Both the position numbers and the translations under genes were made by a program. Under the pieces are notes generated by a model, which was given only the letters and a program-made list of their open reading frames with translations, searched no databases and was not told where the DNA came from. A stretch of 64,000 nucleotides of DNA. Source: Cucumis sativus (taxonomy: Eukaryota > Streptophyta > Magnoliopsida > Cucurbitales > Cucurbitaceae). The stretch is taken from assembly GCF_000004075.3 (NCBI RefSeq), contig NC_026655.2, positions 6,634,001-6,698,000 on the forward strand, written 5' to 3'. Of this stretch, positions 558 to 61,380 are shown piece after piece (position 1 is the first letter of the stretch; each line of letters begins with the position of its first letter).

Positions 558-574
558 TTAAAAGAAAAACTCAC

Positions 575-2031
575 TTGGGTCAGTGGTGGTGATCATAGCC
601 AGACCCTTGAAATCGCAAGATCCAGAAGTTTTCCCTTCTTTCTGATAATAGCTATCAAATGCATAAGAAGCATGGTTCTTCACATTGTTAGGCTGATAAC
701 AAACCTCGCCAGGTTGAATCTCTGTACAATTAGCTTTGCCAGGTCCACAAGCCCAATCTAAAGCCGTTTGCAATGTCTTCACATCGAACTCATCTATTGC
801 AATACAATAAGTTTGATTCGTCGTATCATTAGCCAAAAACGTTCCACTTCCCGATACATGAAGCAAATATACCGGCGTGGAGTTTCCATAAAACAGCCCC
901 CAATTCGCCTCGGACACCGGCGGCGACCGTAAATCCTCATTGAACAGTTCATAGATATACACACTCGAAGTAACTTCAGGGTGAAATGGGGTTCCACTTC
1001 TGTCGATAATATGTTTGATTAGATTCGAATTGAAATTGTCGGCGTTGTTGATTGTGGCGTACGGCTCTTTCGAATCGCCCTTTGAAGGCCACCCAGTTTC
1101 AGTAACGAGAACCACCACGTCTGTGATATTAAGATTCTTCATCGAGAAATAAGCAGAGTCAATCATGGCGTCGAGAACATTGGTGTAGTGAAGCAGAGTA
1201 TTGGGATCAACCATTTCCTTAGACGGAACCAAGGGTTTGAAGAGCGCATTATCAAGAGGAACAACCCCTTTGTTTTGCATAAAAACATAATAAGGGTAAA
1301 AATTCATCATCAAAGGCGACCCAGTTCTTGAAAGGAACTGAAGCAGAGGAAGTATGAACTGAACCAAGCTCTGGTTGAAGAAAGCCTGCGATGGTGGAAA
1401 TGGGTCGAGAATAATCGAAGCTGCGTGTGGAGTCGAAATGGTGATTTGGGTATGAAGATTTGCAGCAACAAGGGCATTGTAAAGGGATTCAATAGCAGGA
1501 AGTAGCAAAGGAGAAGCAGAAGGGATGGTGGTTAAAACCTCATCGCCGACGGAAATGCCGGAAATTAGTGTCTGAGGGTAGTACGCCACCACATTCCGGG
1601 AAATCCATGCGGCAGCGGTAGTATTCGAATACCCAATTGCAAGAAGTTGGTTGTTGGGTACACTGATTACAACTCTAATTTTCGAACCCTTTAGGGCTTT
1701 GAGAATATCAGGGTTCGTATCGTAAAGCCGAATGTGAGTGATTTTCTGAAAATGCAAGAAGGAAACTAAATCTGAAGGCGATAAAAGATTCGAAACGTCA
1801 CTCCCAATATTAACCCCAACAAATGGCTGTTTATCATCTTTGTCCACCTTCACCCCCTTAATCAATGGCGGAAATTTACCTGCAAAAACCCCCCGAAAAG
1901 AGAAAGAAAGATAAGAACAAAAAAGAGAAACTTCTACAACGTGTTAGAAGATATCCAATGTACGTACCTTCTGAAACAGTGAGAAACACAAAAAGGAAGA
2001 GAAAAAACAAAGAAAACTTAGAATCTGCCAT
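575..2031 (-). CDS. Glucan endo-1,3-beta-glucosidase, GH17 with C-terminal X8 (CBM43) domain; 3' end outside window
   Basis: Hydrolyses (1,3)-beta-glucan (callose) at the wall or plasma membrane. Exon 1 (1968-2031) encodes a hydrophobic signal peptide beginning MADSKFSLFF. It splices through a GTACGT donor and TTTTTGCAG acceptor to exon 2 (575-1879), restoring the phase as SEGKFPP. The GH17 barrel spans about residues 30-345. The predicted acid is Glu135 in SVGDEV, where most relatives have GNEV. The predicted nucleophile is Glu282 in VTETGWPSKG. The X8 domain follows (about 382-456), starting YCIAIDE with the family's spaced cysteines. Exon 2 ends at GACCCAA|GTGAGT, just where relatives continue into a short C-terminal exon that often carries a GPI-anchor signal. 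At least 456 residues are visible. The family is certain; plasma-membrane anchoring is inferred because the tail is not seen. Confidence 0.9.
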
Positions 2032-5270: not shown

Positions 5271-7411
5271 TCAACGTAGGGCATTCACAAAAGCCGTCAA
5301 CGACTCAACATCCCTCTTCTCAGATGGGTATTTGATTGCTTTAGATGAATGTTTGGGGAAGAGGAGTATTGTGGGGAATGACCCTAACTCCAGCTCTTGT
5401 TTGGCGAATTGCTTCTGCTCACCGTCAGCTCTGAACTTACCAACTTTCACTCCACTTCCTGCTAACTTGTCAGCCAATTCAACATATGACCCTTCCATAG
5501 CCTGTACAAAATTCAATGTCATTTATTGAGAACAAATGTATTGTACTTTTGTTTGTTAAGCTTACAAATGACATTTACCTGACAGAATTGGCACCAAGGT
5601 GCGTAAAGAACAACAAGCCAAGGTTCTTTCCTGTTATCCAGCCTTGTCAAGTTTTCCATTCCTGTTCTGTTCAGGTTCACCAAATTTTGGGAGATGAATA
5701 TGTCATTAACTGAGGGAGTTTCATTTCCATTGCCATTCAGCTGGGGGACATCTCCCTGTTTAAGGTTTCCTTTGTGAAGACCGCATTCCTTGGCCTTGGA
5801 ATCCTCCCACCACCATCTTCCTTCTCTTTCATGTTGCCCTGGAAGAACAGGCCTTGTACAAGGCTCACATCCAATTGAGACATATCCTTGAGAATGCAAA
5901 GAGTTTACAGGCACATTCATGGTCCGCAAGAAGTTCCATACGTCTTTACCATGGACGTTGGCGACAGGGTTCCACTTAATCAGGCTCCCAATGCCACCAT
6001 CCAACCCTTCAAAAACAGGATCAACTTGGACAACAGGAACTTCTGATCTAGTTCCGGGAGATTGGTCTTTTCTTTGTCCAGTGATCCAAGCTCTTAGTCC
6101 CTTTAAAGCCCTCCTCAATGGCCTCACTTTCCTTACTCGGCAGCACTCCTGGTGGCCATCATCGTAGAATGAAAACAGCCCTTTGTTCCTTACTAAACCC
6201 TGAACTTCAACAGCATCAGGGAACATGTACTCTATATGAATGCCATACTGTTTCTCCACTGCATCAAAGAATTGGTATGTTTCTGAATTCAACCTCCCTG
6301 TGTCCAGACTAAATACTCTAAATGGTCGACCAGTCAAACGAGCATATTCAATCAATGCAACATCTTCCGCACCACTGCAGTGTTAGATGTTTTGTTGGTA
6401 AGAGAAACACAAGGAAATTCTTTAAACCTTAAATGCTTTACTGCTAAATTCTTCTCAAGGGTGAAAATTACTAATACCCTTGAATCTATAATCATTAGTT
6501 GCATTAGGCTCTACCATCTACAGCTGATGGTAGCCAAAAGCTTATTGAAAATGAAACAATTAATAAACTAACAGAGTGAGAGGTGCAATATGAGTTGCCA
6601 TACATTTGTTTTGGATAGTCTTTGGTCATATTTAAGATAGGCGAATTAGGTGAACAATAAATAAATCCAGTAACACGAATCTCTAAAGAAAATGCTTGAA
6701 AAAGGTCTATTCTAATCATTGAACAATAACTATGTATAATATATGTGACTAAGATACATGTTACAGATCACAGATTCAACAGCATTACAATTTAAAGTTT
6801 CAGACATTTGAGACGTAATATTTGAAAATTAAACCTAAAGACAATTTAATCAAATAACGGGATAAAAACACACCTGAAAGCAATCGCAATATCGTCACCA
6901 AATTTCCCAAGAGCTTGGTCCATTATTTCCAGAGGGGAAGCATTTTCAAGGTCTTTGGCTAATCCATCATAGTCCACAATCTCCGTTCTCTCTGCCACCT
7001 CTGCAGACCCATCCCCATTATTCACACAATTCCCAGAAATGAAATACAATTGATGAAAATAGAAGAAAAGCTATTCAAAATTACCAGGAGCAAGAGTATT
7101 GGCCACGAACGGCACAAGCGAATCATTCCGTTTGGATTGCGCATTCATAGGCTTCACCACCGAGCATCCTCTAATTCGTGAATAATTCACTCCAGAAGAT
7201 AAAACATGCGGCGGATGCAGCAGCTGAAGAGAACCAATTGGTGGAACTGCAAACGGAAATGACATACATATACACAATTTAAGAAATTAAGATTGTAGTG
7301 AAAATAGAAATGTTGAAAGAAAAAAAAAAAGTGAAGAATACCATTAGGGTCAGAGGAAGCGGCAAAATGGTGAAAATGAGAAGAAGAAGAAGAAGAAAGA
7401 GAAAGCGCCAT
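5271..7411 (-). CDS. APR: 5'-adenylylsulfate (APS) reductase, chloroplastic
   Basis: Reduces APS to sulfite with glutathione in plastids, a key regulatory step of sulfate assimilation. Five exons: 7342-7411, 7085-7246, 6874-7000, 5579-6374 and 5271-5501. The phases close to 1386 nt, or 461 residues, normal for plant APR. Residues 1 to about 60 form a Ser-rich plastid transit peptide ([13 protein letters not shown]). The PAPS-reductase-like core spans about 100-320, with [12 protein letters not shown] near the nucleotide site, the Cys197-Cys198 pair in HQECCRVRK, Cys289 and Cys292 in IGCEPCTRP, and Cys317 in KECGLHKGN. These cysteines match the Fe-S cluster and catalytic set. A thioredoxin-like domain follows (about 360-461) with WCQFC (381-385), which serves as the glutaredoxin-like active site. 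The last intron falls directly after WCQFCQ. Which APR isoform this is cannot be told from the window. Confidence 0.96.
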
Positions 7412-9420: not shown

Positions 9421-12310
9421 CGGTCAATCTCCCTGCCGCAACCCTCTGCCGTGAAAACGCTTCCACGAACACCGCGCCGCGAACTCCAGCAACCTCCTAC
9501 CAATATTCTGTGAACTGTATACTCGCCGCCGTCGCAAGCACCCTCCTGCCTTGAAGACCTCTGCTGGCGACCTCCTGCCGTGAAGAAACAACCGCGCCGC
9601 GAACTCCAGCAACCTCCTGCCTCGAATCCCAACTGCAATTCCAGTGAAATCCCAGCCACGAACTTTAGCCTCGAATCCCAGCCGCAAATACTCTGTGAAT
9701 CTCCAGCAGCTAATTATATTTAGATGGAGAAACATGAAGTTGCTCGTCCCATTAGCACCATTCTCGATGGAACTAATTATATCACTTGGGCCCACCAAAT
9801 GAGGAGTTTTTTGATAGGTCGAAAACTGTGGCGCATCGTTACTGGAGATATCACTAAACCAGTCAAACCTACTCCTCCGATGGACACCACTGAAAATATT
9901 GATACAGACCCATCTGATGTCACTGTTCAAGAGACGACTGCAGAAACCGACAAATATGATTCACACTCAATTCTCCAGCAAAATTAAAATCTTTCGAACT
10001 GATAATGCGATGGAATATAAGGACTCTCAACTTCTTTCCTTCCTTGCCCAGCAAGGCACTCTGATTCAACGCTCCTGTCCTCACACCTCTCAGCAAAATG
10101 GAAGAGCTGAACGCAAACATCGTCACATTCTTGACTCTGTTCGTGCTCAGCTTCTATCTGCTGCTTGTCCAGAAAAATTCTGGGGCGAGGCTGCCCTCAC
10201 CTCTGTCTATGTCATCAATCGTCTTCCTTCAAAAGTCACTAAAAATGTTTCTCCCTTTGAAAGACTATACGGTACTTCCCCTTCTTACTCCAATCTAAAA
10301 ATTTTTGGTTGTGCATGTTTCGTATTATTATATCCTCATGAACATACCAAACTTGAACCACGTGCACGTCTATGTTGCTTCTTGGGTTATGGTACTGAAC
10401 ATAAAGGATTTCGTTGTTGGGATCCCATCTCTCAACGATTACGTATATCTCGTCATGTCACCTTCTGGGAACATCGTATGTTTTCTAGTCTTTCCTCATT
10501 CCATGAATCTCTTTCAAGTTCTCACCCATTCTTCACCGATCCGTCTATTGACCTTTTTCCCTCACTTGATTCAACACCTGACACTACACCTTGCATGTTA
10601 CCTATACCTGAGCCCACTCAATCGGACCATATTTCTGCACTCCCGGATCTTCCATCTGCCCCTCTTGAGGAACCTGAATCTACACCAATCCGACGATCTA
10701 CACGGGTAAGAGAAATTCCCTCTCATCTTAAAGATTATCATTGTTTCTCCACCATCATGTCTTTAGTTGAACCTTCCTCGTATAAGGAAGCCAGCACTAA
10801 CCCATTATGGCAGCAAGCAATGAATGAAGAACTTCAAGCCTTAGAAAAGACTCATACTTGGGAATATGTGGACTTACCTCCTGGAAAGAAACCTATTGGT
10901 TGTAAATGGATCTTCAAAATCAAAACACACTCTGATGGGTCTATAGAACGATACAAAGCACGACTTGTAGCCAAAGGTTATTCTCAAGAATATGGCATTG
11001 ATTATGAAGAAACGTTTGCTCCAGTAGCTCGAATGACGTCTGTTCGTAGTCTTTTAGCCATTGCAGCTGCAAAACAGTGGCCCCTCTTACAAATGGATGT
11101 TAAAAATGCATTTCTCAATGGAACTCTATCTGAAGAAGTCTATATGAAACCACCACCTGGTACTACCCGCCACATCAGAAAGTATGTCTTCTTCGACGAG
11201 CTCTCTATGGTCTCAAACAGGCTCCCCGAGCCTGGTTTGCAACTTTTAGCTCCACTATTACTCAACTTGGGTTCACTTCCAGCCCTCATGATTCAGCCTT
11301 GTTCACCCGCCAGACACCTAATGGTATTGTACTCCTTCTTTTATATGTTGATGACATGATTATTACAGGCGATGACCCTCAAGCTATATCTGAATTGCAA
11401 TGCTACCTGGGAAAGCACTTTGAAATGAAGGATTTAGGACCTCTCAGTTATTTCCTTGGCCTTGAGATCACCTCCGTATCTGATGGCTATTACTTATCTC
11501 AAGCTAAATATGCTTCTGACCTACTCAGTCGATCTGGTATTACTGATTCTACAACATCCTCAACACCTCTGGATCCAAATGTTCGACTTACTCCTTATGA
11601 TGGTGTTCCCCTTGACGATCCTACTTTGTACCGGCAACTTGTTGGTAGCTTGATTTACTTAACTGTAACTCGCCCTGATATTGCGTTCGCAGTTCACATA
11701 GTCAGTCAATTCATGGCCGCTCCCCGTACTATTCATTTCACTGCTGTCCTTCGGATTCTTCGCTACATTAAAGGCACTTTGGGTCATGGTCTCCACTTCT
11801 CCTCACAGTCTTCTCTGGTTCTCTCTGGATTCTCTGATGCTGATTGGGCAGGAGATCCTACTGATAGAAGATCCACCACTGGCTATTGTTTTTATTTAGG
11901 TGATGCTCTTATCTCCTGGCGCAGCAAGAAACAATCTGTTGTTTCCCGGTCTAGCACTGAGTCTGAATATCGTGCTCTAGCTGATGCCACTTCAGAATTA
12001 TTATGGCTTCGTTGGCTTCTTACTGATATGGGAGCCCCACAAACATCATCTACTACTCTCCATTGTGATAACCGCAGTGCCATTCAGATTGCACACAATG
12101 ATGTATTTCATGAACGAACAAAGCACATAGAGAACGATTGTCATTTTGTCCGTCATCATCTTCAAAGCAACACTCTCCATCTTCAATCTATCTCTACCAT
12201 TGATCAACCTGCAGATATCTTCACCAAAGCTCTCCATTCTCCTCGTTTCACTCTGTTACTTCACAAACTCAAGGTGGTTTCTACTCTACCAACTTGAGTT
12301 TGAGGGAGGG

Positions 12311-27015: not shown

Positions 27016-27549
27016 TCACTCTAAAAAACCCGTCTTTGTTAAAATGGCGTTTCGAACTTTACTTAAATCTCTTCCTTTGAGAGTTCTTCCAACCCCTTCA
27101 CAAACAGAGAATGACGAAATTCTGCTTCTTGCTAATTTCTGAGCAATCCATTCATGAGGAGGCACCATATCCTCATCTTCACCGTCTTCTTGATCTCTAA
27201 CGTCATCTTTATCCCCGGTGGATGACGAACCCATTTTTCCGTAAATTTTGGACCAATCGGGAATGTCCACCGGAGCAGAGGATCGATTATTCGCCATCTG
27301 GGTTTCATGTGCTCTTGTTGAAATGGATTTCGGGATCATTTTTGGAGCAGTTGGGAGACGCCAAGTGGAAGAAGAAGAAGATAAGGACGAAGAAGAAGAA
27401 GAAGAGGAGGAGTAATAATAGTCACTAGACTTTCTACTGATGAAATTTGAAGAATCTTCTTTACCTTCAACAGAATTCCATACATCTTCTTCTTCCAAAT
27501 CATCACTGAATCCATAGTTTTTTCTCAAAGCACTGCTCCAATTCGCCAT
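27016..27549 (-). CDS. Senescence regulator S40 family protein (DUF584)
   Basis: Small plant-specific, probably nuclear protein related to barley S40 and Arabidopsis S40 genes, which respond to senescence, dark and stress; biochemical role unknown. Single exon, 177 residues, starting at the ATG of MANWSSALRKNYGF. Upstream in-frame codons encode only a Leu/Phe run made by CTT-rich 5' UTR DNA, so they were excluded. There is an acidic N-terminus, a long Ser run (about 45-65), the motif IPDWSKIYG and the conserved C-terminal block VPPHEWIAQKLARSRISSFS ending in GRDLSKVRNAIL. The Ser run is encoded by a trinucleotide-rich tract prone to length change. Confidence 0.92.
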   Translation of the reverse strand: MANWSSALRKNYGFSDDLEEEDVWNSVEGKEDSSNFISRKSSDYYYSSSSSSSSSLSSSSSTWRLPTAPKMIPKSISTRAHETQMANNRSSAPVDIPDWSKIYGKMGSSSTGDKDDVRDQEDGEDEDMVPPHEWIAQKLARSRISSFSVCEGVGRTLKGRDLSKVRNAILTKTGFLE

Positions 27550-27947
27550 TGATATCTGATTAACGAGAAGAAGAAGAAGAGAAAAAAAAAAAAAAAACAA
27601 CAACAACAACAGTAAGTAAAAGATTAGTCATCTCGGGAATGAAAAAGAAAAAGGCAAAATAAAAATAGATTCTGTAGAATTTTAGTACCCAGGCTTTTGT
27701 GGCAGAGTTCTGTTGAGAAAAAAGCAGAGCTTTTTTCAAGAATTCCTGAAATGGGTTTTGTTCATAATCCAAAAAAACATGAGGAGAATGGGAGAGAAGG
27801 TGTAAAGAAAGAAGAAGGAAAAGGAAAAGGGGAAGGAGAAGGGGGAAGAACAGAGGTTTTGAATGTAATGTGGGAAAGGAGAAGACCACAAAAACAGAGA
27901 GAAATCAGAGATGGGTTTTAATGGCCAATTAAAAACTGAAAAGAAGA

Positions 27948-38400: not shown

Positions 38401-41400
38401 ACCTTAACTGCAGAAACAAATAATAACACTATCAAGCATCTCCTGAAGGACAAATAGAAAAAGGAGAAACAAGAAAATTTCCCGGCATCAAAATTGCACC
38501 AAAAAGGACCGGTTAGAAACATTAAGGAGAACACCATTAATCTAACCCAATGATTAAAAGGTGTTAAAAATGAAGTCTTACCAGTGGCTTTCACATGACT
38601 GCCACCATCTACAGGTAACATTTTTTGTGGTGGCAATGGACCCTTACGGTGGGACCAACGATTAAATGAACATCTGAACCATACTTCAGGTTTTCCATTA
38701 AGAGGTGTATTTGCAGGATTGTAAAAGACTGTCACTGCGCTTCCTGCTTGAACATCAACCGGATCAGTGAACACTATGTGCTTCTGTGACAACAAAAAGT
38801 TCTTCATGGTCCTTTCCTTTGTCTCAGATTTCATTCGAGCTGTTCTTTCAGCCTAGAACAAAGGGACACACAAATTAGTAGCTGCCAATGAAAGGGAGAC
38901 ATAAAAACTGGTTTTTCTTTCAGAAGAGAAACAATTTCAATGATGGATGATATAAAGAGAGGTAAAAGACACAAAATACCAAAAGGCGTCTTACAATGAA
39001 GCCTTCAAAAAGACTATTCTTTAAAAATTGTTTAAGTGCACTAATATAAAGCATGAAACAAAATTGTTCCCAAGGGGCAGCCTCGTTGGCAAGGGGCTCG
39101 AGTCTCTTGGTCAAACCGACTTAGAGGTCCCAAGTTCAACCCTTTGAGTGAGCTTAATACCAAAAACTCTTGATGTCTTCAAGTCCAACCCTTAGGGAGC
39201 AAATGCCCCAGGTAAAGGGGAGCTAAGCTCCAACTCCCAATTAAATAAAAATAAATAAAATAATAAAAGCATGAAATAAAGTCACTTCCAATAAACTATC
39301 AGAACTTGATGAAGGGGATCCCAACAAATCCTTCCATTCCACTCATATCAAAGATTCCAGAAGAAACCCTTGCTGATAGCAAGCCTCCACCACATTTGGT
39401 GTAATCAAAGAAGAAAGGGACGAAAAGAACAGATGGGAGAGTTAAGCGTTATGGCTAAACAAGAATATCCAAAGTACCTTTCAAGACAACCAATTAGAAG
39501 AAGCTACAGAATCACTAAATTAATAATATATATATATATATATATATAAATGGTCTTGAAAAACGCAAATATACAGCAATTTAGAATGCTTAATATTAAC
39601 TACATTCAGTAGAGGTATTTGAAAGGTAGCCTAAATATTTCTGCACATTATGGTTTTCTCTAAAGATATTTGTGTTGAATTGTTAGTTTAAATCAAAAAG
39701 AAATTAAATATTGAGTGAACTGTAAATTTTTGGTGATTGACCTTGGCACGAATAGCCTCCTCTCTCAATCTCCTCTCTTCCTGAAGTTTCCTATAAGTCA
39801 TGTGTTCTTCCTCAACCCAGTAAACCTCCTCAGAAATGGCTTTTGGAACAATGGCATGGAAATCAAGACGTTTGTTGTTATCATAAATATTGGCCTTTTT
39901 GGGCGGCCCATCAGCAAGAACCCAATCCAGAACAAGGGCACGGTCAGGTACAGTTACTGCAAAATGTATAGTTGTGACTTGTGTATGTCAGTACGTTTGA
40001 TGAAACTCAATGCTAAATATAAAAATTAAATGTAACATCAGCCTATAAATAAAGGGATCAGAGTACTCAATTAACGTTTTCCCCTCTTAAACCAAGGGCG
40101 GCTATAAATTTACAGCCTTATTTGATCCCCCACATACATCTTTCTAGAGCCATTAGAGGTTGTGTTGATCTGAAAACCAAAAAGTGTAACATTCTTTCCC
40201 CCATTCAATAAGGATTAACAACCTGGACCACAAGCAGAAAATTCATTTGGCAGCTAAAGATCACATTATGTATAATGTGACAATATCTACCGTTAAAATC
40301 TTCAACAATATCTACTATGTAGGATCTTTGTTTTGTGGAGGGAGAGAACTTGTGAAATATTATGGTGATAATTGTCTGGTGCCACACTAAATACCTGATG
40401 TTTTCCTCTACATTTTTTCTTTAGGACAGGGTCTTTCTTATTCTTGAAAGATCGATCAAGTCAAACATAAATTATTTGTTGTAAAAAGGCCTTGCATGTA
40501 AAACAATCTAAACAACAAGATGGATGGTAATTAAAGTTCTACATTTTTCAGGCCTCGCATTTTTGCTTACTTATCAAAGCTATTGCCTCCAAATGGTTAT
40601 TCAAGAGTTAAAGACCTCTAGGCTCTAAGTACATGTAGCATTTCTGGAAAATTTTCACTACTCTGTAAATACACCAGGGTAACTCAACATCGACATGCTA
40701 CCACAATATAAAAGGAATACATGACACATTCACACGTACCATCAGCATACCACCAATCACATTTGTCCTTTGTCACAGCAAAGACAAGCATTTCAATAAT
40801 GGATAACCCATCTTTCCAATTATTATGCCCACCATGAATCCAAATCTCTTCTGCCTGGGCAAGAGGACCAGAATTTTTATTGTAGTATAACCTGACTGAG
40901 TCTCCACCTTGAAACAGAGTAGGTTCAATATACCAAACATTATCAACAGACTTCACTGCCGTTTTTAAAAGATGTTTCAACACCTCTCTTCTCTTTTCAG
41001 TCTCCACCTTCGCCTGTGCTCTATCAGCTTCACTAGCAACCTTCTCAGCTTCTATTCGCTTCAGCTCTTCTTCTTGTCTTTCCCTTTCAGCCCTCTCTTT
41101 GGCAAGTCTTTCCAGTTCTTTACGTTTCTCCTCTAGTAAGAAATCTTCAAATGTAGAGGCGTCCATTCCGCCTTCCACATATATGCAGAAATCCTTTCCA
41201 TCGTTATTTTCATAGACATCTTTCCCATTTAAAAACACAAAGTCTATCTTGTAAGCCTCTTTGGGAACATGAATCTGACACGACCACCAATCCCCATCTA
41301 TATTTGCTTTGTTAAGCCTCGTAGTAAAAGATTTCCACTTCCAGTCATTGAACGCTCCCATGATCAAAACATCTTGCTCTCCATTCAGAATGGAAAGACT

Positions 41401-42644
41401 CCTATTAAAGAACAATTCTATATTTTGATCAGGTTTAACAACTGGCGGAAAAACAAACACTTGAATTCCTCCTAAGAAGTTTTCCTCAGCCAGTTTCTCA
41501 ATTTCCTGTCTCTTTGCATTTGCTTCCATCTCCAACTTTAATTTTAAAGATTCTTCAGTTAACTTTTCTTCTGTCTTCAGGGGTTCATCTTCCTCAGAGT
41601 TATCTAGGACATCTGAAACTGTTTCATCTGGTTCATTCTCCTCTTCTTTCTCCTGTAGTCTTCTGCCTATCCCACTTAACCTACCTGCCATTCCATTATC
41701 TATTGCTGCATTATTTTCATCAACAGAAGTAGATTTACTTGTCAAAGAGCTTTTCCTTTCCGCATCATTCCCAATTTTTTTCTGTACATCTTCATCCTTT
41801 TGCGAAACTTTAGCTGCTAAATCCACCTTATCTCCTACCGTCAATTTAACTGCTGCCTGATTGGGCTTTGTGTGTGCACTAGATTTGAGCGTTGCAGACC
41901 CTTCTTCCTCTTCATCATCTCTTTCAGGGGTGCTTGCTCCTACAGGAACTTTAGGTTTGAATCCCTTTGCTGCAGAGCTTTCAAGTTTCGCAGTTGACAA
42001 TTTCCTAGATCTCCTCCTCGAAGAATCTACAAGAATTCAATTTCAATTTAATCATAAAAAATAATGTATAGAAAATTAACCCATGAAGCATAAACGTGAA
42101 AGAAACCAACAGAACCAACCTGACTGACGGGCACTAGCAACAATTCTGAACGACCTCCCGGCCACAAGATGCCCTCTGAACGATAGGGGAGACTGAACCC
42201 GTAAAATTAAAGCAAGAAATGAAAGTTCAGGTACGTCAATCTCAACTCCAAATATCAAGATCATATAAACAGTAACACATTTCAGCCAGAAAAGTAGTGT
42301 AATGCTAACAAAAAAGCAAGTCACACAAAACTCTGCTCGTATGGCATTGAAATTCATCGATTCCAAAATCAACAAACCAACGAAAAACAGAAACTTCAAT
42401 GAATATCATTTGAATCAAGCACCATTACAACTAAAGAAAAGAAAAAAAAGAAGAAATCAAGACACGTAAGCAGAACAACGGTGGAATGGAAACAACGAAA
42501 AATCCAAAATACCAGTGTAGTAGAAGTGGTAGACGACGCTCTATTCCCATGAAATAGTCTGGACCTCAAACTCCCACCTTGTGCTTCACTCAAATTCGTC
42601 GTCCTCCAACACCGCGACACATGTGCTTGAAGCGCCACCTCCAT
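32477..42644 (-). CDS. SS3: Soluble starch synthase III, chloroplastic/amyloplastic
   Basis: Elongates amylopectin chains from ADP-glucose in plastids (GT5). Sixteen exons: 42513-42644, 42120-42192, 40740-42026, 39742-39956, 38582-38852, 38232-38407, 37108-37215, 36614-36723, 36010-36115, 35321-35491, 34708-34836, 34094-34276, 33778-33909, 33595-33706, 32904-33027 and 32477-32606. They total 3459 nt, or 1152 residues, with every phase consistent. A transit peptide ([13 protein letters not shown]) precedes an acidic, coiled-coil-rich arm (about 95-250). Three CBM53 starch-binding modules lie at roughly 254-350, 410-520 and 590-700. The GT-B catalytic part begins at KVGGLGDVV (718-726), includes [14 protein letters not shown] and [14 protein letters not shown], and carries the second KTGGL motif (about 1065-1069). 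The stop follows YHAARK. Exon 9 starts four codons before its strongest-looking AG, giving [11 protein letters not shown] as in relatives. Confidence 0.97.
39063..39265 (+). mobile_element. SINE in a starch synthase III intron
   Basis: A 203-bp insertion with a tRNA-like head: A-box-like TGGCAAGGGGC (39087-39097) and B-box-like AAGTTCAACCC (39132-39142), at the usual spacing. The tail is A-rich (AAATA units). It is flanked by a 15-bp target duplication with one mismatch, aaagcatgaaacaaa (39048-39062) and aaagcatgaaataaa (39266-39280). The orientation is opposite to the host gene, inside the intron 38853-39741. Family name unknown to me. Confidence 0.8.
39524..39550. repeat. TA microsatellite in a starch synthase intron
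   Basis: More than ten TA units within the same intron as the SINE. Confidence 0.85.
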
Positions 42645-44623: not shown

Positions 44624-45745
44624 TTAAGTCAAGGCATTAGCACCAGCAACAATCTCCAAGATTTCTCCAGTAATCTTAGCTTGGCGCTGTCTATTATACA
44701 CAATAGACAGAGTTCTCTTCAGCTCAGAAGCATTATCGGTTGCATTACTCATAGCACTCATTCTAGCAGCAAGTTCACTGGCCAATGACTCTTGCAATGC
44801 CCTCAAAATCTGGCTGTTCAAATACAAAGGCAATAAAGCATCCAAGATCTGAACTGGGTCTTGCTCGAACTCCAAAATTGGTGAAAAATCTGATGTGCTT
44901 GTCCTCACTGAATCCCTTTCTACTGTCAATTTCCCTTCCTTTGTTGTCAACCTGAAAAACTCATCTTCTGCAGCATCTACACAGACTCCATTTATATCAC
45001 AGATCTCACCTTTTGGTGATAGAGGAAGAAGAGTATGAATTACAGGATCAGATTTTACCAATGACACGAATTTTGTATACAAAAGCTCTACTTTATCAAC
45101 TTCCTCACTAACAAAGAGTGAAAAAACATCATCAGCTATCGCTTGAGCTTCTTTAGCTGTGGGAAGAGTACCACCTTCAAGGAACTTATCGACAGGAATG
45201 TACGGTCGGCGAAGGAAATAAGAATTACCCTTCTTTCCAACACTAATGACAGTGTAATCAAGACCAAGGGCCTTCAATTCCTTTATTCTAGCTTCAGCTT
45301 TCTTAATGATGCTATTGTTGAAACCACCACAAAGTCCTCTATCACCGGTGACAACAACTAATGCAACTTTCTTAACAGGTCTTACTTTGGTTAAAGGAAC
45401 ATCAACATCTTCTGTTTGAAGTTGCTCATTGATGTTGTAAAGGACTTCAACTAAGGCTTCAGAGAAGGGTCTTCCATTAACAACAGCTTCTTGAGCTCTA
45501 CGGACTTTGGCAGCAGCAACAAGCTTCATAGCTTCAGTGATCTTCTGGGTGTTCTTCACCGAATCGATACGGTCTCGGAGTTCCCGAAGACCGCAATGGA
45601 TTGGAGTAACTGACCATGATCGAGCAGGGGTTGAATTCTGGGAAGGAAGTTGAAAAGGGCTCAAAAAAGAGCGGAAAGACAGGGAGGATGCATCAGAAAC
45701 GGTGGGTTTTGAAGACACCCACATAGTCAGATTCGAACAAGACAT
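44624..45745 (-). CDS. atpC: ATP synthase gamma chain, chloroplastic
   Basis: Central rotating shaft of the CF1 ATP synthase on the thylakoid membrane. Intronless, 373 residues. The first 50 or so residues are a Ser-rich transit peptide. The mature part begins near GLRELRDRIDSVKNTQKI, the N-terminal rotor helix. LVVVTGDRGLCGGFN (129-143) lies in the conserved globular core, and the C-terminal helix contains ALQESLASELAARMSAM and NRQRQAKIT. The plant- and alga-specific redox insert is present: Cys249 and Cys255 in EICDINGVCVDAAEDE, the pair reduced by thioredoxin to activate the enzyme in light. This marks the photosynthetic gamma-1 (ATPC1) type rather than the cysteine-poor gamma-2. Confidence 0.98.
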   Translation of the reverse strand: MSCSNLTMWVSSKPTVSDASSLSFRSFLSPFQLPSQNSTPARSWSVTPIHCGLRELRDRIDSVKNTQKITEAMKLVAAAKVRRAQEAVVNGRPFSEALVEVLYNINEQLQTEDVDVPLTKVRPVKKVALVVVTGDRGLCGGFNNSIIKKAEARIKELKALGLDYTVISVGKKGNSYFLRRPYIPVDKFLEGGTLPTAKEAQAIADDVFSLFVSEEVDKVELLYTKFVSLVKSDPVIHTLLPLSPKGEICDINGVCVDAAEDEFFRLTTKEGKLTVERDSVRTSTSDFSPILEFEQDPVQILDALLPLYLNSQILRALQESLASELAARMSAMSNATDNASELKRTLSIVYNRQRQAKITGEILEIVAGANALT

Positions 45746-46730
45746 GGTTTAGCAGCCGAGGGAGGGAGGTGAGCTGTGGATTGGCGGAGAAGAGGGCCTG
45801 CACAGAAGGGGTTCAGGTTATTCTTGGGGTAAAGTCTTATCTTCATTCAATGGCGATGGTGGTTCTGGTTAGCAAGAAAGGAGTGAGAAATGAGTGGAGT
45901 AGAATATTGAGAGAGGATGAGGCTAAAGGATAACGATTTCGACAGTTGAGATGGTCGGAGGCAAGCTCTTGATACATTTAGTAAGGGGTGGGTCCGCCAT
46001 TTTATTTGTCATGGTGGACTAAATGTGGATACGGGTTTTTTGAGTTTTTTTTTTACCATTTTTCTAGTTATTGCGAATATTCTCTAACCAAATCCTGCCG
46101 ATCCTTTTCAATCCTGGGATTAGACTTGAGAGAAGGTATGAGAAACAGTAAAACTAGAGAAGTGGGAAGCTTTACAAACTATAACACATTGCTAAGTGGA
46201 TGTCGCATAGACTAACGGAGGAGGTTAGATCATTTCTGGGACAACGGATCAATGTGACTTTTCAAGCATACCATGCCGTTGACTAAGCAAAATGTGACGC
46301 ACACTTCGGGATTCGTCCTACACCCAACAAGGGGTGCCGCCAACCTAAAGGAACTAACAAGATGCAACGCTTTCATCGCCGGGGATACCAACGTAAGAAC
46401 CAATCAATTGCAGCCGCTCAACATACTTTTGAGGCACATCAATGCACCAAGCCTGTCAACACAAACTACCTGATCACCGCTTGGGTGCATGAATTTTGGA
46501 CTAATTAGAAGTTCAGAACAATAAATATATTTTTTATACTTGAAAAGGCAAATGAATTTACAACTGACAAAGTTAAATTTACAAGTAATAATTTACATTT
46601 GATCGATTTAACAATTTATGGGGGGAACACTAGCATTTATTATATAATACAGTTCGTTCTGAAGCAAAAAATGTAATATTTCATCCTACTGCTGCAATCT
46701 GTAGGTATGTTCCAATCGTGCTATGCGGGG
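45746..46730. other. atpC upstream region and spacer
   Basis: The first 230 bp or so are the probable atpC 5' UTR and promoter. A less AT-rich block at about 46220-46490 has no recognisable gene; its 66-codon open frame (46273-46473) has no family resemblance. The right end is the 3' side of the PPR pseudogene. Confidence 0.4.
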
Positions 46731-48663
46731 CTACCTCTCAGTGTGTTCTTGAAGGCAGGGGCTTACAAAAGACCGGTATGTTTTCCTATCAGGAACTGCT
46801 CCTTTAAGCATCATATAACCATGTAACTCAATTACATCCTCGGAGCCACAAGTCTCAACAAAATTGGTGATGAGAGTCGTGTATGTTATAAGGTCGGGAA
46901 TGATCCCCTGGCTAGACATTGCTCTCATCAGTTCCATGGCTTGTTGGATCAATCCCATCTTGCATAGAAAGTTAATCATTATATTGTAAGAAACTATGTT
47001 CACCAAACTCCCCACATTAATCATCTCTAAAAACAGTGCAAAAGCCTTCTCGATCTCCCCATTGACGCAGAATCCATGTAGCAATGTGTTATAGGTAACT
47101 GGATCGAGAAAACCATTTTGCTGTAATTTGTCTACCAAGAGTTTAGCAGCATAAATTGAACCTTGCTTGCACAGCCCATCTAAAATAGAATTATACACCA
47201 CAGCTTTGTCATAAATCTGAACCGCAGCTTCAATTTTTCCTTCCTTACAATGCCCATCAACCGGAGTGCCATAAGTAACCATGTCAGGTTTGATACCACC
47301 AACGATCATACTGCTCAGTAGTTGCTTGGCGCCTGCTATATTCCGGCTCTGAAACATATAGTTGATAAGAATATTATAAGTAAATGCATCTCTTACAAGG
47401 CTTCTTTCGACAATGTAGTAGTGAACTCTTAAAGCTTTATTGAGATGTCCACTTACGCAAAGACCTTTTGTAAGGATGGAGTAGGTAAACTCATCAGGGA
47501 GGATACGCCTATTAATCATGTCAGATAATAAAAAAGAAGCTTCTTCTAATTCTCCTTCCATGTATAGCCAGTAGATGAGGGAGTTATATACAAAAGTGTC
47601 TGGAATCAAACCTCATTTCAACCATTTCATCACATAACCTAAATGCCACATCCAAACTCCCTTTTCTAGCATATCCGTCAATCAAAGTGGCATATGTTCT
47701 CTCATTGAAATCTATTCCCAGCTTAATCATTTCACCAAGAACATTTTTTGCAGACTCTAACCTCCTTATCTTGCAGAATCCATTAATGATACAATTATAG
47801 GCAACTATATTAGGCGAAACACTGCCTCCTGAAATCACCTCAATGTTCCTTGTCAGCTTTAGAGCAAGATCCATCTCACCCATTTTATTTGCTTTATCGA
47901 TGATCATATTAAAGTAACGACATTAGGCCAAATTTCAATCTTCAGCATCAAATAAACAACATATATTGCTTCTAGTAATTTACATTCATTGCATAAAGCA
48001 TAAATAATCAAATTAAAAGTATTCACATTTTCACTGTAACCACTGGCAATCATTTCCTTATACATGTTCTAAAACTTATCAGTCTCGCCCAACTTTAAAA
48101 GTAGATTTAAGAAGTTATTCCAAGCATGAATCGTAACCCAAAAACCTTCTAGTCTCAACTTTCTTATTACGTCATATGCACCTTCCACGCTCCTTAACTG
48201 AGTGCACGTCCTCACCAGTGCTCAAAGACTGCAGGATTTGAATTACAAATTTCGTAGCTATTCATCAATCCTCCCAGAACCTCCAATGGAGACTTACCAT
48301 TTTAAGTATTAAACTCTCCATGATAGACAAGGCATCATTAAAGTTTCTGGAATTGACTAAAACGTGAACCAAGGTACAACGTGATTCTAATGAGTGGGAA
48401 AAGTTGTCTCTTGCCTCAACCCAGTTGTAGAATTCTAAAGCTAACTGTGGAGAGTTGCGAAATTCGCGAATAACACGACAGACCAACGAATTCGTGAGAC
48501 TTGGTGATAGTTGCTCTAAGAACTTCCATCTTCTCTGTTTTAAATTAACACAAATTGCTTTACAAATGATATCCTCGGTGCTTGGACTTAAAAGCTTCTT
48601 ACCCGTATGAAAACCTCGTCTGAAAACAGAACTTCCCCTCAGAAAAAGGAGGCTAAAAATCAT
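46731..48663 (-). pseudogene. Decayed mitochondrial-type PPR protein gene
   Basis: Relic of a P-class pentatricopeptide repeat protein, an organelle RNA-binding family. The likely original start (48663) gives a hydrophobic, Arg-containing presequence (MIFSLLFLRGSSVFRRGF). PPR motifs follow in three separated frames: about 48663-48265, 47907-47584 and 47609-46731, with classic blocks such as VTYNTLLHGFCVNGEIEKA and FTYNILINYMF. The gene is interrupted by about four single-base frame changes (near 48298, 48220, 47912 and 47607), a TAG in place of an expected sense codon near 48073, and an apparent in-frame loss within one repeat near 47205. A functional intron explanation is unlikely because PPR motifs run continuously across the breaks. 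It may be allelic, with an intact copy elsewhere. Confidence 0.82.
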
Positions 48664-58410: not shown

Positions 58411-61380
58411 TTAATCTTTACTGCTTGAAGTATTGTCAGAATTACTTTCTGTTTCTTCAGAGATATCTTCATTCTTTGCATTTTCTTCCATAGCTTTTGG
58501 CATGAAGGAGCCAAAGGGAAAGCTGCAGTAAGGCTGTGATTGGAAGGAGATGTAATTTCCACTTGATGGAAAAGAATGGGAAGCATAAGCTGAAGGGTAA
58601 ATCCCTGAATTGAAAGAATTTGGAGGCGGCCAATACATGAAAGGAACAAATGCGTTTGGTGGGAAATAATTAAATGAGTTGTGACCTTGGTAAGAGGCCA
58701 TAGCAGTACAGGAACTAGCAACCATAGGGTTTGGAATTGGATGGTTACTGTCTACTGGAGCTTGAGATGGAGATGGCAGTGACTGAAATGCTGCCACAGC
58801 ACGAGTTTGGATTGAAGTATACCCTACTAATCCAAATTTTGTTGTAGTATCTGAAGAGCCAGGCTGTTGGTAAGTACTACTTGGCTTTTTCCCCTTTGAT
58901 CTTTTTGAAACTGTTCTTCCAACTAGATGCTTCTGAACAAATTTGTTATCCTGTGTCGAACAAATTGTGTCAAGGTCTCAAGTTCATGATGCAATTATAG
59001 ATAAGGGATTGTATCTTAGATCTTACAATGTTATCTGTCGTCGAGTGTGCAAGAAATAACTCCTCGCCTTCGGCATCTTTGTCTGTCCTGCAAAAGAAAG
59101 TTCATCGCTCAAGTGCAGCATACTAGCAACCTATCGTGTTAAATAATTCAATTAGCAGAAGAAGAGTTGTTCTTATCATGACAATGACAAGGTTCTCTAG
59201 GTGTAATTACAATCCTCCATAAACCATATTTCAAAAATGCTTCTTTTTTCTTGTTAAGTAACACCAGCTTTCAAACATCTCCATAATTGTATGAACCACG
59301 ATATAGTCCATTTTGGACATGAAACTGTATAGCTTTGCTTTTAGTTTCACCCCAAAAAGGCCACATCCTAATTGCATTACTTACATACTCATGATCATCA
59401 CTTTATCTAGTCAATGTAGGACTTTGGTCACATTTCCAACCGTTCTTTTTGGTTATCTTCATGGCAATTATTGCAATACCTGTAGTATTTCTGAAGCAAG
59501 TCCAAATTACGGTATTTGGTTTCTTTGCGGACAAGATCATCAGGAAAACCAGCCATGAAAAGAAGTGTAATGCCCAAGGCTTTGAAGAAAAAACTCCCAC
59601 TACGAATATTCGCCAGCATAGCCATCCTGCACACGAGTGGCCCAAATGACTTGAGCTTGTTTCTTCCCATTCGCTGCCTCACATACCTTAGCATATCCAG
59701 TGACAAAATCTTCTAGTTAATCAATAACCATATATGAACACAATGCAAAGGTAAATTTGTTTGATAACAACATCGCTCTTCTCGTAAAATAGTTGTCTTA
59801 CTCGTTTTGTGGAAGATTTCTTGTCCTGCCACCATATTTGATGCAGAGAAAGAAGCAAGAAGGACAGTTAACATCCAATGGTCGCATAGATTTCTCTTCC
59901 TCTAGTATTTGAACCGGACATAATGTTGGATTATGCCTATTGGGGTAGAAAATCCTCCTCCTAATACCATGATTCTCATACAAGACATGCTCCTGGTAGC
60001 AAATAAAGTACATTTTAGCCTTTTAGATTGATGGACAACAGACATAATAAAATGTGAAAATATTTTACTCGTCTATATTTAAAGCAGTTAAAGGAAATAA
60101 TAGTGACAATGGTGCATATGGGCATTCTTTGATGTCCAAATCAAACTCATTGTGAGAAAAATGCCCTTTGGTTTAGAAGTGAACGTCGTAACAACCACTA
60201 GATATTTCTGAAACACGACTTCAACAAATCTTGATATACTTACCCCAGGATTTTGAGGAGAAATGAACGGCTCTCCTTTCCTTAGAATACTGAATTGATC
60301 GAAGTCCAAATCGTATATCTCTTCACACCCATGCCTTATACCAAGACATGAAAACACTATTATTTTCCTCATGGTATGAGACTGAGCATTTTTTTGCAGC
60401 AAGACTTCCGATTCAATAATTCTCTTTACTTCTTTAGGACAGAAGGCTAACTTTGGTGGCTTTTTTTGAAGCGAGACGTTTCGAAATCCTACTTTACAAA
60501 CTTCATTCCCAGATACAAGGATGTTTGGTGGTCTATCATACAGTTCAAAGTTTTTGGTTTTTTCACTTTTATCTTCTACCTCACTTTTAGCCTCCTGTAT
60601 TTTTCCATATTCTTTAGCTTTTGTTTGATTGTTTTCAGCACCAGAGTGATTCTCCAAGTATCTTGAATTTGAATCGAGGTATATATGTTGTTTAGGATCA
60701 TTGGCACCTTTGGAGTTTCCATTAATTTCCCAATCCTTGATGTCAAAAGGAATTTCCCTCCCCTCGTGATAATAATTTTCTTCATCATCAGTTTCATCTG
60801 TATCTACAGAATCTACTCTTATATCACATTCCTTTAATTTTTCACAATGCACAAACTGTGTCTCATCCATACTCATCCAACTAACCAATTGATCCTCTAG
60901 ATTTGTATCTTTTGAAGACAAGAGGTCAGTTCCATCCTTCATTAGTGTTTCATTTTTCTCAACATTATGATGACTTCTACCTGTTTCTTCTTTGCTTCTC
61001 TTAAGCCTCTTGAAACTTCTTCCCACTGTCTTGGAACAACTTCCCTGCAATGGAAGGAGAAAATGGGCATTCAGAACATGAAACAGAATGAGAAAATACA
61101 ACGAAATGAGTGGGAAAAGAAAAGGAGTAACCAAATTATAACTGAGAAAACATACTAGTTTATCAGCAACTTGGGAATCCTCAACTCTCTCCTCTAACAA
61201 TTTAGCTTCAAGAAATGATATTCTCTCCATAAGCTCTGCATTTCTCTGTCTCTCTCTTTGTAACTCATCAGCCATTTGTGCAATAACATTCACAGTCTCC
61301 CCTTTGGACTCGTGGTCTATTGTAGCACATAACCCACGTGGATTAACCAAACCAGAAGCACAAGCTTGAAGCTCCACCAT
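58411..61380 (-). CDS. Uncharacterised protein with Crypton/DUF3504-like tyrosine-recombinase fold
   Basis: Six exons: 61156-61380, 60244-61044, 59802-59992, 59480-59686, 59027-59087 and 58411-58950. They total 2025 nt, or 674 residues, in consistent phase. Residues 35-60 form a coiled coil (MADELQRERQRNAELMERI). A basic stretch (RSFKRLKRSK) near 85 could be a nuclear signal. Residues 100-260 are acidic and probably disordered. Residues 300-475 read like the tyrosine-recombinase fold of Crypton-derived DUF3504 proteins: box-I-like FSCLGIRHGCEEIYDLDFDQ (Arg312), NPTLCPV (363-369), MGRNKLKSFGPLVC (412-425), then ITLLFMAGFPDDLV and the C-terminal LLQKYY (Tyr473/474). The HxxR box is FxxK (438-441). 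The C-terminus is Ser/Pro/Tyr/Phe-rich and low complexity. Likely a nuclear, non-catalytic DNA-binding or scaffold protein. The fold assignment is inferred from motif order, without a search. Confidence 0.72.

What the first reader, a model, noticed from the sequence alone, without database searches (positions are those of the whole stretch)
58411..61380. Plant gene that reads as a domesticated Crypton-type tyrosine recombinase
The middle of this 674-residue protein carries, in the right order and spacing, the landmarks of the DUF3504/Crypton recombinase fold known from animal ZMYM2, ZMYM4, QRICH1 and KCTD1: a box-I-like GIRHGCEEIYDLDFDQF, a CPV segment, MGRNKLKSFG, an AGFPDDLV helix and a C-terminal LLQKYY. 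Cryptons and their domesticated copies are described mainly in animals, fungi and oomycetes. I know of no named plant family, so this could be an independent or very old plant domestication. What is seen is the motif order; homology is inferred.
Basis: partly seen in the sequence, partly recalled or inferred. Interest (0 to 1): 0.8.

Follow-up and report, generated by a model that had tools for sequence, protein, structure and literature searches.

The report
Plant gene built from dead recombinase
A plant gene appears to carry, in its middle, the inactivated core of a DNA-moving enzyme of the Crypton type, a kind of gene capture so far described in animals and fungi, so plants may have tamed such a mobile element too.

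Summary
No further copy was found in its 226.6 Mb genome. Curated libraries give nothing significant and two single-sequence AlphaFold2 runs failed. Homology to the DUF3504/Crypton recombinase domain still has statistical support: a profile of three Crypton-type sequences scores 29.5 bits from the CPV segment to the terminal tyrosine, 0 of 2000 shuffles reaching it. The box I arginine and terminal tyrosine remain; both histidines are replaced and the second arginine is a lysine. Most likely a domesticated, inactive recombinase now used as a nuclear DNA- or protein-binding module. Fold, plant-wide conservation and age are untested.

The parts
61156..61380 (-). exon 1 (residues 1-75); holds a Glu/Leu/Arg-rich stretch, residues 39-65, that reads as a coiled coil
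   Evidence: coiled coil judged by eye, not computed
60244..61044 (-). exon 2 (residues 76-342); basic cluster KTVGRSFKRLKRSKEE 80-95, acidic linker, then the start of the recombinase-like domain
59802..59992 (-). exon 3 (residues 343-406); an alternative acceptor at 60019 would add AKMYFICYQ
59480..59686 (-). exon 4 (residues 406-475), MGRNKL to the terminal YY
59027..59087 (-). exon 5 (residues 475-495)
58411..58932 (-). exon 6 (residues 496-668 and stop); basic cluster 496-512, then a tail rich in Ser, Pro, Phe, Ala and Tyr (530-640)
59087..60459 (-). recombinase-like domain, residues 271-475, net charge +13, spread over exons 2-5
60301..60342 (-). box I-like GIRHGCEEIYDLDF (310-323) with Arg312 at the place of the first catalytic arginine
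   Evidence: outside the stretch scored
59912..59932 (-). NPTLCPV segment (363-369)
59641..59670 (-). MGRNKLKSFG (412-421), counterpart of the Crypton PLGxNxLGxF segment (label recalled)
59482..59487 (-). Tyr473-Tyr474; Tyr473 at the place of the recombinase nucleophile tyrosine

Best explanation
The gene encodes a host protein whose residues about 271-475 descend from the catalytic domain of a Crypton-type (DUF3504-related) tyrosine recombinase. In the alignment the first arginine (Arg312) and the tyrosine (Tyr473) are kept, the H-x-x-R pair has become Phe438 and Lys441, and the later GH histidine Tyr464, so it should not cut or rejoin DNA (inferred, not tested). It has six exons and no second copy was found in its genome, so it is a gene and not a transposon. 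Most likely it works in the nucleus (two basic clusters) as a regulator: the N-terminal coiled coil pairs it with itself or a partner, the positively charged recombinase fold binds DNA or chromatin proteins, and the Ser/Pro/Phe/Tyr-rich tail recruits transcription or chromatin factors. The homology step is supported by computation here; the functional steps are inferred from architecture and from what is published for animal DUF3504 proteins.
For: The alignment is collinear from residue about 358 to the terminal Tyr. Among 1449 six-frame ORFs of the window and fetched loci (this gene's own exons included) the protein ranks 4th (29.1 bits) and 2nd (22.8 bits) with the two profiles; the three ORFs and the one ORF above it are bacterial recombinases; the best ORF outside this gene and the recombinase loci has 17.0 and 7.0 bits. 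Masking control: 6 of 6. Single sequences: K1 and K3 0 of 2000 shuffles each, ZMYM2 and ZMYM4 2 each, K4 4, ZMYM3 13. ZMYM/QRICH1-only profile: 8 of 2000.
Against: No curated model reports the protein: Pfam at E up to 10, NCBIfam, PHROGs and PDB sequences (PDB best an unrelated E 2). PF12012, PF00589 and two single Crypton-type queries, run against the whole genome exon by exon, do not find this gene. A profile of 34 bacterial recombinases finds nothing (183 of 200 shuffles reach it; 44 of 1000 in another test). An end-free alignment to the whole ZMYM/QRICH1 profile is weak (24 of 400 shuffles; 3 of 148 bacterial segments). The C-terminal part alone gives no signal with the bacterial or the ZMYM/QRICH1 profile. 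Both AlphaFold2 runs failed (mean pLDDT 38.3 and 33.6). An unrelated ORF reached 17.0 bits with the three-sequence profile, so its E-values are optimistic.
Confidence: 0.74

Rival explanations
1. A plant-specific domain unrelated to recombinases that happens to share a few short motifs (CPV, RNKL, a terminal YY).
Against: 29.5 and 22.8 bits with 0 of 2000 shuffles each, ranking beside bacterial recombinases among 1449 ORFs, collinear matches, and shared residues that are the ones weighted by Pfam's curated DUF3504 model.
Confidence: 0.18
2. A recombinase fold captured from another tyrosine-recombinase element (DIRS-like retrotransposon, polinton-like virus, organelle or bacterial integrase), not from a Crypton. 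This overlaps with the best explanation and differs only in the source element.
For: Plants already use a domain from DIRS-1-like elements (ALOG; PMC3537659, abstract); 15 ALOG matches were reported in this genome. The origin cannot be told from one diverged sequence.
Against: The plant domain scores 29.5 bits with the Crypton-type profile but -0.3 with the bacterial profile. DIRS and polinton-like recombinases were not tested.
Confidence: 0.2
3. A recent or decaying Crypton transposon copy rather than a host gene.
For: Only that mobile elements lie in the same window (a copia element at 9.8-12.3 kb).
Against: Six exons with clean splice sites and 668 open codons, no second copy found in 226.6 Mb, long N- and C-terminal regions outside the domain, H-x-x-R changed.
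Confidence: 0.03

Closest known systems
Animal DUF3504 proteins (ZMYM2/3/4, QRICH1, WOC, KCTD1, KIAA1958), Pfam PF12012
   Same: The CPV, F-[FY]-L and [GD]-x-N-x-L segments align collinearly with ZMYM2; catalytically incomplete; part of a longer protein.
   Different: Below Pfam's reporting level. The ZMYM/QRICH1 regions used here end before the box II part, while the plant protein continues to the terminal tyrosine. Kojima and Jurka report that the human DUF3504 proteins lost the catalytic tyrosine and second arginine; here the tyrosine position is kept. No MYM-finger or BTB match.
Crypton transposons and KIAA1958-like Crypton-type recombinases (names of K1, K3 and K4 recalled)
   Same: Best profile match, with [GA]-[LIF]-R, P-V, P, G-x-N-x-[LI] or similar, and the C-terminal spacing x-P-x(3)-[IV]-x(14)-Y of K1, K4 and the plant protein.
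   Different: H-x-x-R and GH replaced, introns, no second copy.
ALOG domain of land plants (LSH1/G1), from DIRS-1-like elements
   Same: A plant regulator made from a tyrosine-recombinase part (PMC3537659, abstract).
   Different: [quoted passage not shown] here it is the catalytic domain, and no ALOG match was found in the protein.
Bacterial XerC/D-type recombinases (PF00589)
   Same: Same superfamily as DUF3504 (DNA_BRE_C, PMC8371274, passages).
   Different: No direct sequence similarity detected.

Membership tests
DUF3504 (Pfam PF12012) | Match above Pfam's curated cut-off of 29.7 bits | tested here: not met
   Nothing at E up to 10; the genome scan gives only a 16.4-bit stretch on C3
DUF3504 / Crypton-type recombinase domain | Significant similarity to known members over the domain | tested here: met
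DUF3504 / Crypton-type recombinase domain | Box I, CPV, GxNxL, C-terminal helix and tyrosine in order | tested here: met
   box I by alignment only
Crypton (active element) | Complete R-H-R-Y catalytic set | tested here: not met
   Arg312 and Tyr473 keep their places; His to Phe438, Arg to Lys441, GH His to Tyr464
Crypton (active element) | Several copies in the genome | tested here: not met
   No second copy found; two Crypton-type queries find no significant locus, nor this gene
Domesticated recombinase gene | Intact gene with introns and without further copies | tested here: met
Domesticated recombinase gene | Conserved at the same place across species under purifying selection | not testable with these tools
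   No plant genome other than its own was offered; genome contigs gave one spurious match
Tyrosine-recombinase fold | Structure | tested here: inconclusive
   mean pLDDT 38.3 and 33.6
ALOG (PF04852) | ALOG domain match | tested here: not met
   No such match in the protein; 15 matches elsewhere in the genome

The most novel reading that the evidence does not exclude
Land plants hold an ancient, single-copy nuclear regulator made from a Crypton recombinase, captured independently of the animal ZMYM/QRICH1 and fungal lines and keeping the catalytic-domain C-terminus that ZMYM and QRICH1 lack; it would be the first Crypton-derived gene known in plants and evidence that Cryptons once lived in the plant lineage.
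Probability: 0.5. Interest if true: 0.76.

Novelty: new variant of a known kind. Interest (0 to 1): 0.6.

Why it matters
Cryptons are described from animals, fungi, oomycetes and a diatom (PMC3212892, abstract). A 2020 review says they had not been described in Arabidopsis (PMC7385966, passages), and a 2026 review says they are not described in plants (PMC13317346, passage). A plant gene with a Crypton-type domain would extend the recurrent capture of these recombinases for gene regulation to a further kingdom, give an unnamed plant protein a fold and a testable function, and offer a comparison for DUF3504, a domain of unknown function in several human genes.

Tried and rejected
Bacterial recombinase route: 34 sequences from 35 loci fetched with PF00589 show no similarity to the plant domain. 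Curated libraries and PDB sequences: no significant match; searches used the 677-residue model with 9 extra residues, and PDB and PHROGs were repeated with the corrected domain, again without a significant match. Relatives elsewhere: genome contigs gave L004, rejected because the match lies in a wrong frame over what reads as a methyltransferase ORF; viral contigs gave nothing for the plant domain or its MGRNKLKSFGP motif, nor for DUF3504/Crypton-type queries; phages gave five matches at E 5 or worse, taken as chance. Other loci in the same genome: C3 4656910 (16.4 bits to PF12012) is a short stretch with a stop, taken as chance; L050 and L051 taken as chance. AlphaFold2: two jobs, both unusable, so no fold search was run.

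The profile test against ZMYM/QRICH1 alone was only suggestive; the Crypton-type sequences were added after that, so the strong result follows a weaker one. The short segments (box I segment against the bacterial profile, 8 of 1000) were chosen after looking. K2 is a consensus-like composite and gives the highest single score (26.6 bits; 38.0 in a four-sequence profile); results without it are quoted as the main ones. In the masking control the random sets were drawn from aligned residues that differ from the plant protein. The Phage_integrase score does not follow the DUF3504 pattern: masking the plant-identical residues cost more than random masking only for K4 (2 of 6 comparisons), which fits the changed catalytic residues. 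K1 was trimmed at its N-terminus for the masked versions, and its unmasked score is that of the longer version.

Full report
The window is a stretch of contig C1 of a 226.6 Mb genome in 88 contigs, a plant by its gene content. The finding lies on the minus strand. Six exons with GT-AG borders give a protein of 668 residues ending at 58411. The exon 3 acceptor is uncertain by 27 bases: 60019 gives 677 residues, 59992 gives 668; the later one is used here.

Architecture (parts by eye): residues 39-65 read as a coiled coil; 80-95 and 496-512 are basic clusters; 76-270 is an acidic linker; 271-475 is positively charged (net +13) and is the candidate domain; 530-640 is rich in Ser, Pro, Phe, Ala and Tyr.

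In its own genome no second copy was found. The domain finds three stretches and the whole protein six, all of them in this gene. Scans with DUF3504 (PF12012) and Phage_integrase (PF00589) find no significant locus, and do not find this gene; the same holds for two single Crypton-type queries. ALOG (PF04852), another recombinase-derived plant domain, gives 15 matches, so family scans work here.

Direct look-ups fail. Pfam at E up to 10 lists only a 0.3 match to an unrelated domain and nothing for the domain; NCBIfam and PHROGs give nothing and the PDB sequences only an unrelated E of 2. Two AlphaFold2 runs on the single sequence have mean pLDDT of 38.3 and 33.6 and say nothing about the fold. 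No relative turned up in the viral or prokaryote collections.

Because no eukaryote collection is at hand, I tested homology against known families. A profile of 34 bacterial recombinases, from loci fetched, shows no similarity (hhalign score 10.5, 183 of 200 shuffles reach it). A profile of these four gives 5.3 bits, reached by 8 of 2000 shuffles, and hhalign 3 of 1000; an end-free alignment over the whole profile is weaker, 24 of 400. This was suggestive only.

Pfam gives them DUF3504 at 93.6-107.3 bits and Phage_integrase at 38-40 bits, and K1 finds annotated tyrosine integrases by tblastn, weakly (best E 0.02 in phages and 0.003 in plasmids). The profile of the three scores the plant domain at 29.5 bits, with 0 of 2000 shuffles reaching it (best 4.9); seven sequences together without the composite K2 give 22.8 bits, 0 of 2000, and an hhalign probability of 92%, 0 of 500. 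The scored alignment runs collinearly from residue about 358 to the terminal tyrosine; box I lies outside it and is matched only in the multiple alignments, with one extra residue. Singly, K1 and K3 are reached by 0 of 2000 shuffles, K4 by 4, ZMYM2 and ZMYM4 by 2 each, ZMYM3 by 13, and QRICH1 by 130. Against 1449 six-frame ORFs of 50 residues or more from the window and fetched loci, the protein ranks 4th and 2nd with the two profiles; the ORFs above it carry the recombinase motifs. The best ORF outside this gene and the recombinase loci reaches 17.0 and 7.0 bits. That 17-bit chance match over 38 residues shows that the nominal E-values are too good, but the plant protein stays 12 and 16 bits above the best such ORF.

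The weakness is that the strong profile rests on recalled sequences, and I had read the plant sequence before writing them. I therefore masked, in K1, K3 and K4, the 35, 37 and 35 residues identical to the plant protein, and for comparison two sets each of equally many other aligned residues drawn at random. DUF3504 scores fell from 95.5 to 42.7 (random: 60.0, 82.7), from 93.6 to 30.8 (random: 53.2, 34.9) and from 107.3 to 58.7 (random: 75.7, 61.0): lower than random in 6 of 6 comparisons. The residues shared with the plant protein are thus those that Pfam's curated model weights, which is not what contaminated recall would be expected to give. The Phage_integrase scores do not follow this pattern (lower than random in 2 of 6).

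Catalytic positions, from the alignment read: Arg312 sits at the first arginine and Tyr473 at the nucleophile tyrosine; the H-x-x-R pair falls on Phe438 and Lys441, and the GH histidine on Tyr464. The protein is probably inactive as a recombinase, although arginine to lysine is a mild change. The seven human DUF3504 proteins lost the tyrosine and second arginine (PMC3212892, section 10 read), so the plant protein kept a different subset and the C-terminus, which argues for a separate history; this is inference from one sequence.

Function: Kojima and Jurka propose DNA binding or protein-protein contact for domesticated recombinases and note that many are transcription regulators (section 16 read); a later paper cites structural likeness of DUF3504 to BEN DNA-binding domains (PMC10579616, passages). 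With its coiled coil, basic clusters and positively charged domain, the plant protein fits a nuclear DNA- or chromatin-binding regulator. No step of this was tested.

Novelty: eight full-text searches were run, with 40 of 246, 25 of 61, 2 of 2, 10 of 20,136, 10 of 137,316, 15 of 27, 15 of 750 and 1 of 1 papers listed; none of the listed titles and abstract openings describes a Crypton-derived gene in plants. Of twelve papers opened, I read two sections and passages of one (PMC3212892), the abstract and outline of one (PMC3537659) and passages of ten. Kojima and Jurka name one candidate DUF3504 gene in the mitochondrion of a green alga. Reviews of 2020 and 2026 state that Cryptons have not been described in A. 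thaliana and in plants (PMC7385966; PMC13317346), and a 2016 paper lists six superfamilies of DNA transposons in plants without them (PMC4938662). The library lacks most subscription papers, so an earlier report cannot be excluded.

The homology is likely (about three in four), the loss of catalysis probable, the role inferred, and plant-wide conservation open.

Noticed in passing
window 9818-12297 (+): A copia-type retrotransposon polyprotein in two overlapping ORFs; the first ORF has RVT_2 and retroviral SH3-like matches.
   Followed up: no
window 558-1943, 5519-6382, 27016-27627, 40684-42036, 44624-45748, 46731-47612 (all -): Ordinary plant genes: glycosyl hydrolase 17 with X8, PAPS/APS reductase, senescence regulator, a CBM53 protein (starch synthase-like), ATP synthase gamma-type chain, PPR protein.
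   Followed up: partly
L005 1501-1587 (own genome C3:4656910-4656996, +): A short stretch with one stop resembling the FYLTP...WF..SPL segment of DUF3504 (16.4 bits, E 1.04); chance, or a very old Crypton fragment.
   Followed up: partly
own genome, 15 matches (C1, C2, C3, C4, C6, C7, C81): ALOG domain matches, some of them probably pieces of one gene; ALOG is the known plant domain taken from a tyrosine-recombinase retroelement.
   Followed up: no
PDB 9hjt, 9hju: Solved entries containing a 776-residue QRICH1 chain exist; their content was not read, but they may offer a DUF3504 structure to compare with.
   Followed up: no
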